This document shows positions 38,140-51,119 of a stretch of 64,000 nucleotides of DNA, piece by piece. Location of the stretch: contig JAJZVM010000012.1 of NCBI GenBank assembly GCA_021845645.1, positions 1 to 64,000 of the forward strand, read 5' to 3'. The DNA comes from Bacillota bacterium (GTDB lineage: Bacteria > Bacillota_E > JAJZYS01 > JAJYTV01). Under the pieces are notes generated by a model, which worked only from the letters and a program-made list of their open reading frames with translations, did not search any database and was not told the DNA's origin. The position numbers and the translations under genes were made by a program. The first letter of the stretch is position 1. Each line of letters starts with the position of its first letter.

Positions 38140-39585
38140 CTAGAGCCCGTAGAGGGCGTGCACTGCGTGCTGCAGAACAGACGTGACCAGCGAGGGCACG
38201 AGGCCCAGGACCAGCGTGCCGACCAGCATGGCGCCCACGGCGAACTGCTGTGCCCAGTGTGCCTTCGACGCCACCGGAGCCTCGACGTCGGCGTGCTGGA
38301 ACATGTAGGCAATCGGCCTGAGGTAGTAGTAGAGGCTGATCATGGTGCCTACCAGGATGGCAATCGCGAGCAGCAGCCCGCCGGACGCGACGGCGGCGCG
38401 CAGGATGTAGAACTTGCCGGGGAACCCGACGAGCGGCGGAATCGAGGCGAGTGAAAGCAGGAAGAACGTCATGGCGCTGGCGAGCCACGGCCTCCGATAG
38501 AAGAGGCCGCGGTACGCCGAGAGCTCCGCGCCTTCCTCGTTCTCGCCCGACAGCGCGGCGACCACCGCGAACGCCCCCAGGTTCATGAAGGCATAGGCCA
38601 CGATGTAGAACATTCCTGCGCCGATGCCGGTCTGGCTGTTCGCCACGATGGCGACAACCAGGTAGCCGGCCTGGGCGATGCCGGAGTATGCCAACATGCG
38701 CTTCATGTTGGTCTGCCTTAGTGCAGCCAGGTTGCCATAAAGGAGTGTCAGGACGGCGAGGAAGCTCAGGACGGGCTGCCAGTGCACCAGGGCGGATGGC
38801 AGGGCCACGGTGAGCAGACGTGCCAGCACGCCGAACGCCGCCGCTTTAGTTCCCACCGACATGAACGCGGTGACAGGCGTCGGCGCTCCCTCATAGACGT
38901 CCGGCACCCAGTTCTGGAACGGCACCAGAGCGAGCTTGAAGGCGAGACCGGCGATCACCAGAGCCGCGCCCAGTTCGAGGTAGAGAGGCTGTGTGCCGAC
39001 GTTCTGCAGGAGAGCCATCTGGATGCCCTGCAGCGTCACCGATCCCGTCGCTCCATAGAGGAACGCGAGGCCGTAGAGGAAGATGCCCGAGGAGAAGGCG
39101 CCAATCAGCAGATACTTCATGGCTGCCTCGCCCGACTTCTCGCGGTGCCGCCGGAAGCCGGAGAGAATGTAGAGCGGCAGCGACAGCACCTCGAGGCCGA
39201 GGAAGATGGACAAGAGCTCCACAGCCGATGTGAGCACGATCATGCCGATCGCCGCCCAGAGCACTAGCGCTACGTAGTCCGCGCCCGGTTCCACCTCGCG
39301 CAGGCCCAGCAGCAGTCCGGCGAAGGCGGAGATGAGGATGGCGGCGTCCATCGCAAGGGAGAAGTGGTCCGCGACGATCGCTCCGCCGAACGACACCTGC
39401 AGGTGACCCTGCCATAGCACCGGGAGGGTTCCGAGCGCCACCAGCACGCCGATGGCGCCGAAGTAGTTCAGCCATGGGCTGTGCTTCTCGTGCAGGAACA
39501 GTGCGATCAGCAGCACGAGCACGGATGTCACGAGCAGGACGATCTCCGGCAGGATGCCAAGAGGATTGATGACAGGGAAGTTCAC
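38140..39585 (-). CDS. nuoN: NADH-quinone oxidoreductase subunit N
   Basis: The 481-residue membrane subunit is one of three antiporter-like proton-pumping units of complex I. It has about fourteen helices, with the family features EVLSLPLYILSGFRRHREK (Glu of TM5), the broken-helix lysine region FKLALVPFQNWVPDVYEGA, and TNMKRMLAYSGIAQAGYLV. It is the last gene of the operon and overlaps nuoM by 4 bp. Confidence 0.95.
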   Translation of the reverse strand: MNFPVINPLGILPEIVLLVTSVLVLLIALFLHEKHSPWLNYFGAIGVLVALGTLPVLWQGHLQVSFGGAIVADHFSLAMDAAILISAFAGLLLGLREVEPGADYVALVLWAAIGMIVLTSAVELLSIFLGLEVLSLPLYILSGFRRHREKSGEAAMKYLLIGAFSSGIFLYGLAFLYGATGSVTLQGIQMALLQNVGTQPLYLELGAALVIAGLAFKLALVPFQNWVPDVYEGAPTPVTAFMSVGTKAAAFGVLARLLTVALPSALVHWQPVLSFLAVLTLLYGNLAALRQTNMKRMLAYSGIAQAGYLVVAIVANSQTGIGAGMFYIVAYAFMNLGAFAVVAALSGENEEGAELSAYRGLFYRRPWLASAMTFFLLSLASIPPLVGFPGKFYILRAAVASGGLLLAIAILVGTMISLYYYLRPIAYMFQHADVEAPVASKAHWAQQFAVGAMLVGTLVLGLVPSLVTSVLQHAVHALYGL

Positions 39586-41090
39586 TTGACCTGCACCTCC
39601 GACGTCACGGTAGACGGCCCCTGTGCCGTCGCCCGCACCGATTGCGAGACATGCGTGAGGGCAGGTCCGATGGCCTTGGTGATGGCGTCCGGGTAGAAGC
39701 CGAAGAACACCATTGCCAGGATCAGCGGCGCGATCAGGGCGATCTGCCCGCCTCTGATCTCAGGTCTTTCACCAGGCGCCCCTGCCGGCGCTCTCGGCGT
39801 GCCATGGGCAACCTTCTGGAACAGACGGATGAAGTACGCCGCGGAGAGGATGACGGCAATGACCGCGATCCAGGCCCAAACGGCGTGCGTCAGGTAGATG
39901 CCGGTGAGCAGGGTGATCTCGCCTGCAAAGCCTTGGAGTCCGGGCAGGCCGAGACCGGTCAGCACTGCTATCAGGAAGAGGCCGGCCAGTATCGGGCCTC
40001 TGGCCTCAAGGCCGCCGAGCGCTTCAAGATCTCGCGTGCCCTGTCGCTCCTCGATCAGACCGAAGAGCAGGAAGAGGCCGGCCGCGTAGATTCCGTGGTT
40101 GAACATCTGCAGAACGGCGCCCTGCAGGCCGGTGTAGCTCAGGGCCGCGATGCCCAGCAGGACGAGCCCGAGGTGCGAGAGCGAGGAGTATCCGATGACG
40201 AGCTTCCCGTCGCGCTGCGCCAGGGCCACGAACGCGCCGTAGAGGATGCTGATGAGGGCCAGGACGCCCAGAGCGGGCGCAAACCGCTGCGCCGCCGTCG
40301 GCAAGATCGGAAGGGCGATGCGAAGGAAGGCATAGAGCGCTGTCTTGGAGAGAACCGACGACAGCATCGTCGTGACAGGTGCCGGAGCCTCCGCGTACGC
40401 CTCTGGCATCCAGCTGTGGAACGGGAATGCCGGGATCTTCACCATGAAGGCGAAGGCGAACGCGGCAAAGAGCCACATCTGCGTCGAGACCGGCAGGCTG
40501 AGGTGCGTCAGTGTGGCAATCGAGAAGCTCCAGCTGCCGAACTGCAGGAAGGCCTCATAGCCCAGCACCACAACCGCTGCCAGCATCAGAAGGCTCGGCA
40601 CCAGGGAGTAGATGAGGAACTTGATCGCGGCCCTCTGTCGCCGGGGTCCGCCGTAGCTGGCGATCAGGATGTAGGCCGGGATGATCATGGCCTCCCAGAA
40701 GACGTAGAAGACGAAGAGGTCAGCCGCCAGGAACACCCCTAGGGCCGTCGCTTCGAGCAGCAGGAAGAGCACGTAGTACGTGCGGTCCCTCGCCGGGGTC
40801 CAGGCGATCGCCACCGCCGAGACGAGGGTCGTCAGGATCACGAGGACGAGTGACAGTCCGTCCAGTCCCAAGGCCCAGTTGACACCCCAGGCGCCGATCC
40901 AAGGCACGCTGATGAGGGTGCCGTACCCTGCGCCGTGGCCGTAGGCGGCCGGGATCAGATAGAGCGTCAGCAGGAACGTGAGGACGGCCACTCCGAACGC
41001 CGTCCAGCGTGCGGCCTTGGCAGGCAGCAGGAGCAGGAGGAGAGCGCCCAGGACCGGCAGGAAAAACAGCACTTCCAGCATTCCCAGCAC
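39582..41090 (-). CDS. nuoM: NADH-quinone oxidoreductase subunit M
   Basis: The 502-residue antiporter-like subunit shows FYVFWEAMIIPAYILIASYG, the key lysine region FMVKIPAFPFHSWMPEAYA, and DGKLVIGYSSLSHLGLVLLG. These are standard for NuoM. It overlaps nuoN by 4 bp and follows nuoL after 3 bp. It belongs to the membrane arm. Confidence 0.95.
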   Translation of the reverse strand: MLGMLEVLFFLPVLGALLLLLLPAKAARWTAFGVAVLTFLLTLYLIPAAYGHGAGYGTLISVPWIGAWGVNWALGLDGLSLVLVILTTLVSAVAIAWTPARDRTYYVLFLLLEATALGVFLAADLFVFYVFWEAMIIPAYILIASYGGPRRQRAAIKFLIYSLVPSLLMLAAVVVLGYEAFLQFGSWSFSIATLTHLSLPVSTQMWLFAAFAFAFMVKIPAFPFHSWMPEAYAEAPAPVTTMLSSVLSKTALYAFLRIALPILPTAAQRFAPALGVLALISILYGAFVALAQRDGKLVIGYSSLSHLGLVLLGIAALSYTGLQGAVLQMFNHGIYAAGLFLLFGLIEERQGTRDLEALGGLEARGPILAGLFLIAVLTGLGLPGLQGFAGEITLLTGIYLTHAVWAWIAVIAVILSAAYFIRLFQKVAHGTPRAPAGAPGERPEIRGGQIALIAPLILAMVFFGFYPDAITKAIGPALTHVSQSVRATAQGPSTVTSEVQVK

Positions 41091-41093
41091 CTC

Positions 41094-50269: not shown

Positions 50270-50772
50270 GCGTGGGCCACCTCCTCGGGCGACGGCATCA
50301 CCGGCGCCATTGGGCGTCCGCCCATGCGGATCTTCTTCTGCAGCTGCATGACCGCCTCAAGCAACCCCTCCGGCGTCGGAGGGCAACCGGGGACATAGAT
50401 ATCCACTGGCACGACGCGGTCGACACCCTGAACCACGGCGTAGTTGTTGAAGACGCCGCCGACTGAGGCACACGCCCCCATCGCGATGACCCACTTCGGC
50501 TCCGGCATCTGGTCGTAGAGCTCGCGCACGATAGGAGCCATCTTCTGGGAGACGCGACCCGCGACGATCATCACGTCCGCCTGCCGGGGCGACGCGCGCA
50601 TGACCTCGGCGCCAAACCGGGACAGGTCAAAACGCGAAGCAGCTGTCGCCATCATCTCGATGGCGCAGCATGCGAGGCCGAACTGAGCCGGCCACAAAGA
50701 GCCGGATTGTGCCCACTGCGCGAGCTTCTTGACGCTCGCAAAGAGGATGGGGCGATCCTCTACTCCTGCCAC
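50266..50772 (-). CDS. nuoB: NADH-quinone oxidoreductase subunit B
   Basis: The 168-residue protein carries the N2 cluster ligands Cys35, Cys36, Cys101 and Cys130, in FGLACCAIEMMATAASRFD, MGACASVGGVFNNYA and VPGCPPTPE. The GTG at 50772 is chosen because GAGAGGGGG lies 6 bases upstream; it overlaps the end of nuoA by 13 bp. The much longer open frame to 51273 is a shadow. Confidence 0.95.
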   Translation of the reverse strand: MAGVEDRPILFASVKKLAQWAQSGSLWPAQFGLACCAIEMMATAASRFDLSRFGAEVMRASPRQADVMIVAGRVSQKMAPIVRELYDQMPEPKWVIAMGACASVGGVFNNYAVVQGVDRVVPVDIYVPGCPPTPEGLLEAVMQLQKKIRMGGRPMAPVMPSPEEVAHA

Positions 50773-51119
50773 TGGAATCCCCCTCTCTTCCACACGTACG
50801 CGTAGCCGATGGCCAGCACGATGATGAAGAGGACCATCTCCATGAGTCCGAAGAGGCGGAGCTTGTGCATCAGCACGGCCCAGGGATAAAACGACACAGC
50901 CTCGACGTCGAAGATCATGAAGAGCATCGCGACGAGGTAAAACTTGACGGAGAACCTGGGACCAACGGATGTCTCGGGAATGATGCCGCACTCGTACGTC
51001 GCCAGCTTCTTGGCCGACGGCTTGCGCGGTCCGAGCATGCGAGACGCGCCGAGCACACCTGCGGTTATGACAAGTGCGACGGCAATGTACAAAGCGATCG
51101 GGAAGTATTGCGAGAGCAT
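50760..51119 (-). CDS. nuoA: NADH-quinone oxidoreductase subunit A
   Basis: The 119-residue protein has three helices and the NuoA motifs KKLATYECGIIPETSVGPR and FLVAMLFMIFDVEAVSFYP (the latter in part, after KFYLVAML). It is the first gene of the nuo operon; an extended -10 promoter lies about 35 bp upstream. Confidence 0.95.
   Translation of the reverse strand: MLSQYFPIALYIAVALVITAGVLGASRMLGPRKPSAKKLATYECGIIPETSVGPRFSVKFYLVAMLFMIFDVEAVSFYPWAVLMHKLRLFGLMEMVLFIIVLAIGYAYVWKRGGFQWQE

What the first reader, a model, noticed from the sequence alone, without database searches (positions are those of the whole stretch)
38140..51119. Complex I operon with NuoEFG but no NuoI
Seen: genes A, B, C, D, E, F, G, H, J, K, L, M, N are intact and tightly packed, yet only 45 bp separate nuoH and nuoJ, where nuoI normally lies. 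Known: NuoI holds clusters N6a and N6b, which connect NuoG to the N2 cluster in NuoB. Bacillota that reduce complex I usually lose EFG and keep I. Losing I while keeping EFG would break the wire unless NuoI is encoded elsewhere or replaced by another two-cluster ferredoxin.
Basis: partly seen in the sequence, partly recalled or inferred. Interest (0 to 1): 0.72.

Follow-up and report, generated by a model that had tools for sequence, protein, structure and literature searches.

The report
Complex I operon with relocated nuoI
A respiratory-enzyme operon of an uncultured Bacillota bacterium really lacks its nuoI gene, but the gene was not lost: in this bacterium's family it sits elsewhere in the genome behind a small zinc-ribbon gene, and in some relatives that one copy may serve two sets of complex I genes.

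Summary
In detail: nuoA-H and nuoJ-N are intact and close-packed, with 45 bp and no nuoI between nuoH and nuoJ. The broken-wire reading does not. The window's own assembly is not held, but genome G001 matches 20 kb of the window at 99.61% and encodes an ordinary NuoI on another contig. All 10 held genomes of this family have that gene (84-100% identical), behind a conserved 63-aa zinc-ribbon-like ORF and beside ybaK-like and glyA genes. Displacement is rare: 55 of 56 strong nuoH genes in a 159-genome phylum sample have nuoI beside them. A sister family also has nuoI displaced, to a different place. Genomes G003 and G006 carry two nuoABCDEFGH sets but one NuoI over cut-off, one NuoJ and one NuoL, so NuoI may be shared by two complex I versions. 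I read it as a 14-subunit complex I whose NuoI is supplied in trans: a new arrangement of a known enzyme. Assembly in trans, sharing, and the small ORF's role are inferred.

The parts
50760..51119 (-). nuoA
   Evidence: NCBIfam NuoA models, below their curated cut-offs; first gene of the operon, as in relatives
50266..50772 (-). nuoB
   Evidence: NuoB over cut-off; start by agreement with G001
49802..50269 (-). nuoC
   Evidence: NuoC over cut-off
48577..49788 (-). nuoD
   Evidence: NuoD over cut-off
48098..48580 (-). nuoE
   Evidence: NuoE over cut-off
46825..48105 (-). nuoF
   Evidence: NuoF over cut-off
44831..46828 (-). nuoG, 665 aa
   Evidence: NuoG over cut-off; 15 of 15 cysteine columns kept
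43849..44829 (-). nuoH
   Evidence: NuoH over one model's cut-off
43804..43848 (-). 45-bp spacer where nuoI is expected
43822..43846 (-). hairpin in the spacer, 11 pairs with a 3-base loop
   Evidence: conserved in the family with two compensated pairs
43291..43803 (-). nuoJ
   Evidence: NuoJ models, below their cut-offs
42975..43277 (-). nuoK
   Evidence: NuoK over cut-off
41094..42971 (-). nuoL
   Evidence: NuoL over cut-off
39582..41090 (-). nuoM
   Evidence: NuoM over cut-off
38140..39585 (-). nuoN
   Evidence: NuoN over cut-off

Best explanation
The operon encodes thirteen of the fourteen subunits of an ordinary NADH:quinone oxidoreductase (complex I, NDH-1). The fourteenth, NuoI, is made from a separate place in the genome, from a likely two-gene unit (zinc-ribbon-like ORF, then nuoI), and joins the complex in trans, supplying clusters N6a and N6b between NuoG and NuoB. 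The gene left its usual place between nuoH and nuoJ before the window's family diversified, possibly before that family parted from its sister family. Shown: no nuoI in the operon, an intact nuoI elsewhere in a genome that matches 20 kb of the window at 99.6%, strong purifying selection on it, and its place in the NuoI tree. Inferred: that the window's own genome carries it, that it is expressed, and that it is built into this complex.
For: G001 matches window 43870-63869 at 99.61% over 20,000 bp in one piece and has a NuoI of 126.8 bits (cut-off 113.05) on another contig, closest in the PDB to Thermus complex I chain 9. All 10 of 10 held genomes of the family have it at 84-100% identity; in the 8 where nuoH was also found it is on a different contig. 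The order ybaK-like, zinc-ribbon ORF, nuoI is in 10 of 10, and glyA follows in 9 of 10, the tenth contig ending first. dN/dS of nuoI is 0.00-0.05 within the genus. Relocated NuoI fall inside the operon-borne NuoI clade (100/100), with those of family f4 (92/89). Fe-S cysteine columns of B, E, F and G are all kept.
Against: The window's own assembly is not held, so its nuoI is inferred from G001. G001 also has a second protein over the NuoI cut-off, in a separate NuoBCD-E-F-G-I cluster, which could in principle serve; it was not found in G003 or G006. The family's genomes are metagenome-assembled (titles of L101-L110). No expression or protein data exist here.
Confidence: 0.9

Rival explanations
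1. NuoI and the membrane arm are shared: in species with a second nuoABCDEFGH operon, the single relocated NuoI and single NuoJKLMN are used by two exchangeable sets of A-H, giving two complex I versions. Separate expression of nuoI would let one gene feed both. This extends, rather than opposes, the main explanation.
For: G003 and G006 (97% and 99% complete) have two NuoH and two NuoG of the nuo type, but one NuoI over cut-off, one NuoJ and one NuoL. The second operon ends at nuoH in G002, G003, G005 and G006, keeps its cysteine columns and changes under purifying selection. Between the two operons NuoH has the lowest dN of the genes compared (0.064-0.082) at ordinary dS (0.60-0.67); it is the only one of B-H in G003 whose dN between operons is lower than between genera (0.126).
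Against: G007 and G008 have the relocated nuoI but one NuoH, as have the three f4 genomes, so sharing is not needed for displacement. G006's main operon is broken over contigs and its NuoJ and NuoL matches are partial. NuoK, M and N were not counted genome-wide. Low NuoH dN can be general constraint. No second set was found in G001, which is 78% complete.
Confidence: 0.3
2. NuoI is truly absent from the complex and another ferredoxin, such as the FdxA-like one 1.6 kb upstream of nuoA, bridges NuoG and NuoB.
For: An FdxA-like ferredoxin gene lies near the operon (52731-52973) and also in G002.
Against: It scores 25.4 bits against the NuoI model with a cut-off of 113.05 and is encoded on the other strand. 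A regular NuoI exists elsewhere in all 10 family genomes.
Confidence: 0.03
3. The window lost nuoI through an assembly error or a strain-specific deletion.
For: The window's own genome cannot be inspected, and G001's contig ends inside nuoH.
Against: The same junction with a conserved spacer is in six other genomes of two genera, and nuoI is elsewhere in each of them.
Confidence: 0.01
4. The NuoI of the separate NuoBCD-E-F-G-I cluster serves this operon.
For: G001 has that cluster and its NuoI is over the cut-off.
Against: It is 46% identical to the relocated NuoI and branches far outside; G003, G006, G007 and G009 show no such match at E <= 1e-15; it comes with its own B-G set.
Confidence: 0.04

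Closest known systems
Bacterial complex I (NDH-1, nuoA-N), e.g. Thermus thermophilus Nqo1-14
   Same: All fourteen subunits are encoded in the species, NuoI with both cluster motifs; best PDB match is the Thermus chain 9.
   Different: nuoI is not between nuoH and nuoJ but elsewhere, behind a lineage-specific small ORF.
Split nuo gene clusters in other bacteria
   Same: PMC12361115 (passages seen) reports that most clades of its tree mix split and single-cluster complex I.
   Different: Here exactly one central Fe-S subunit is out, from an otherwise complete A-N run. The passages seen do not name nuoI.
Complex I-like enzymes without EF or EFG
   Same: A reduced operon.
   Different: Those lack the NADH module and keep NuoI (the second part is recalled); here E, F and G are present and NuoI is made elsewhere.
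Cyanobacterial NDH-1 variants with alternative NdhD/NdhF subunits (recalled, no call)
   Same: One core used with alternative subunits from extra gene copies.
   Different: There distal membrane subunits are exchanged; here, if the sharing idea is right, the A-H block is.

Membership tests
14-subunit complex I (NDH-1) | Genes for A-H and J-N present and intact | tested here: met
   A and J score below the curated cut-offs but match full length
14-subunit complex I (NDH-1) | A NuoI with two 4Fe-4S motifs encoded in the same genome | tested here: inconclusive
   Met in G001, which matches 20 kb of the window at 99.61%; the window's own genome is not held
14-subunit complex I (NDH-1) | Fe-S cysteines of B, E, F and G kept | tested here: met
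   4, 4, 5 and 15 cysteine columns, invariant in five comparison operons, all kept
14-subunit complex I (NDH-1) | Subunits assemble into one NADH:quinone oxidoreductase | not testable with these tools
   needs protein work
NuoI (TIGR01971) | Relocated protein scores over the curated cut-off | tested here: met
   126.8 bits against 113.05 in G001; also in the five further genomes searched
NuoI (TIGR01971) | Two CxxCxxCxxxCP motifs | tested here: met
   both in P0001; cysteine columns invariant in a 16-row alignment
FdxA-type ferredoxin as stand-in for NuoI | NuoI model over cut-off | tested here: not met
   25.4 bits against 113.05

The most novel reading that the evidence does not exclude
In this family NuoI has become a separately expressed hub subunit, made with a lineage-specific zinc-ribbon-like protein that helps build or regulate it; in species with a second nuoABCDEFGH operon it goes into two exchangeable complex I arms that share one NuoJKLMN membrane arm.
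Probability: 0.25. Interest if true: 0.65.

Novelty: new variant of a known kind. Interest (0 to 1): 0.42.

Why it matters
Taking one central Fe-S subunit out of an otherwise intact operon, in a lineage whose phylum otherwise keeps nuoH and nuoI together, gives a natural case of a complex I subunit supplied in trans. If one NuoI and one membrane arm serve two A-H sets, the family would be a natural test of whether complex I arms can be exchanged. For annotation, a nuo operon without nuoI should not be scored as a defective complex I before the rest of the genome is searched.

Tried and rejected
Replacement ferredoxin: the window's only protein with a CxxCxxCxxxCP motif is FdxA-like, 25.4 bits against the NuoI model. 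Gene conversion as the reason why the two NuoH copies are alike: not supported, since dS in nuoH (0.60-0.67) is within the range of the other genes. Intrinsic terminator in the H-J spacer: the scan does not list the hairpin, which has no U-tract; its role stays open. Promoter scan near the operon: one site found against 1.8 expected, no weight. The zinc-ribbon-like ORF has no Pfam or NCBIfam match over a cut-off, eight close clusters in the protein collection, no PDB sequence match below E 0.09 and no fold match at E <= 0.001 (model pLDDT 77), so it is named only by its CxxC...CxxC pattern. Upstream regions of nuoA and nuoI were aligned within each set only; no common element was tested for. 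Literature: six answered searches, judged from listings, showed no paper that I recognised as describing this lineage's nuoI; PMC3578206 and PMC12361115 were read in passages only.

Full report
Observation. The minus strand of window 38140-51119 carries nuoA, B, C, D, E, F, G, H, J, K, L, M and N as open frames. The gap between nuoH and nuoJ is 45 bp and holds no nuoI; all other gaps are 13 bp or less, several are overlaps. No NuoI is encoded elsewhere in the 64 kb. Cysteine columns that are invariant in five comparison operons are all kept: B 4, E 4, F 5, G 15.

Where the gene is. The window's own assembly is not held. The nearest genome, G001, matches window 43870-63869 at 99.61% over 20,000 bp in one piece, so I treat it as the same species. 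Its contig ends inside nuoH, so G001 cannot itself show the H-J junction. It encodes a 177-aa NuoI on contig C166, 126.8 bits against a cut-off of 113.05, closest in the PDB to Thermus complex I chain 9. Among 61 genomes searched, all 10 of the same family (f1) have this gene at 84-100% identity. In 8 of the 10 nuoH was found as well, each time on a different contig; G004 and G009 showed no nuoH match. The order ybaK-like, small ORF, nuoI is in 10 of 10 family genomes (in G005 the first is cut by the contig end), and glyA follows in 9 of 10, the G006 contig ending first (two of the twelve records read are second copies of G001 and G004). GlyA, GcvPA and GcvH are over NCBIfam cut-offs, the ybaK-like protein is below its own.

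Is it a working NuoI? dN/dS is 0.00-0.05 within the genus and 0.08-0.18 in comparisons that involve the second genus. In a tree of 16 NuoI rows the relocated genes of f1 and of f4 (one row) group together (92/89) inside the clade of operon-borne NuoI (100/100), and holding f1 with the divergent NuoI of another cluster is rejected (p-AU 0.014). Seven of 13 inner branches of that tree are open. This fits descent and relocation rather than replacement.

How unusual is it? In a phylum sample of 159 genomes, 56 strong nuoH genes lie in 52 genomes; 55 have nuoI within 600 bases, and the exception is G001. The cut for 'strong' was mine (56 of 71 rows), only 25 candidates a genome were scored for NuoI, and EFG was not required. 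Of 30 class-level nuoH loci examined, 19 have nuoI beside nuoH; the 11 without are 8 of f1 (one of them, G001, ends at the contig end; another is the second operon of G005) and 3 of f4. Families f2 and f3 of the same order have the usual A-N order. In f4 nuoI is on another contig than nuoH in 3 of 3 genomes, at a different locus and without the small ORF. Concatenated trees place f4 as sister of f1 (the f2+f3 split has 99), so one departure from the operon followed by a move is possible; the NuoH-only tree puts f4 with f2, so two departures are not excluded.

What the place left and gained. The H-J spacer carries a hairpin conserved in f1: five distinct sequences, 55 of 55 cells paired, two pairs changed on both sides; 20 of 500 shuffles reach the covariation score, so the support is modest. 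G006 was left out of that count because of a three-base insertion that weakens the fit. The hairpin has no U-tract. Upstream of the relocated nuoI lies a 63-aa ORF with a CxxC...CxxC pattern and a likely TTG start behind AGGAGG. It is in 10 of 10 f1 genomes, on the same contig and strand, with 25-34 bases between the matched stretches, and in 0 of 51 other genomes. An accessory or assembly role is a guess from position.

A second set. G003, G005 and G006 carry a second nuoABCDEFGH operon, and G002 at least D-H of one, cut by a contig end. It stops at nuoH and has no I and no J-N beside it. In G003 and G006 the genome-wide counts are NuoH 2, NuoJ 1, NuoL 1, NuoI over cut-off 1, and NuoG 2 of the nuo type (G003 has a third, weaker match with an in-frame TGA); NuoJ and NuoL of G006 are partial, and K, M and N were not counted. 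The second operon keeps its cysteine columns and changes under purifying selection. Between the operons NuoH has the lowest dN with ordinary dS, and in G003 it alone of B-H is closer between operons than between genera; B exceeds only slightly. This suggests, but does not show, that two arms share one NuoI and one membrane arm. G007 and G008 have the relocated nuoI and one NuoH, so sharing is not needed for relocation. G009 and G010 have fragments of a second set. None was found in G001, 78% complete.

Mechanism. Most likely electrons from NADH pass through NuoF, E and G to the N6a and N6b clusters of a NuoI made elsewhere, then to NuoB and quinone, as in known complex I (pathway recalled); the only change is that NuoI is supplied in trans. 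That the nuo gene order is not essential for assembly in E. coli is the title of a paper in the reference list of PMC12361115 (seen); I did not read that paper.

Verdict. Real, conserved and uncommon, but explained: a relocated nuoI, not a broken complex I. The shared-subunit reading would be more interesting and can be tested. The ten best loci of the family are all titled as metagenome-assembled, and nothing here shows expression or assembly.

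Noticed in passing
L090:851-8311, L091:9326-16814, L093:3786-11245, L092:1529-6778: A second nuoABCDEFGH operon without I or J-N in G003, G006 and G005 (D-H only at a contig end in G002), with a type-II NADH dehydrogenase-like gene next to nuoH in L090, L091 and L092.
   Followed up: partly
L230:3572-9907, L099:8237-14466, L237:2321-8576, L100:1266-7619: A separate cluster of a NuoBCD fusion (about 714-755 aa, in L100 split in two frames), NuoE, F, G and a divergent NuoI, with no nuo membrane subunit beside it: it looks like a membrane-less complex I arm (Pfam checked on L230 only).
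   Followed up: partly
L001:1248-1439 and the same place in nine other genomes: 63-aa zinc-ribbon-like ORF (CxxC...CxxC) directly upstream of the relocated nuoI, found in 10 of 10 family genomes and 0 of 51 others, no known family.
   Followed up: partly
window 51789-52973: A LysR-like regulator ORF (name recalled from its sequence) and an FdxA-like ferredoxin lie upstream of the nuo operon on the other strand; both also lie there in G002.
   Followed up: no
window 44831-46828: NuoG is 665 aa here and in the main operon of G002, G003, G005 and G006, but 723-734 aa in the second operon and 727-728 aa in the sister genus.
   Followed up: no
G001:C382, G002:C144, G003:C40, G005:C10: NuoG-like matches with one in-frame TGA in four genomes, possibly selenocysteine-type formate dehydrogenases (a guess).
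   Followed up: no
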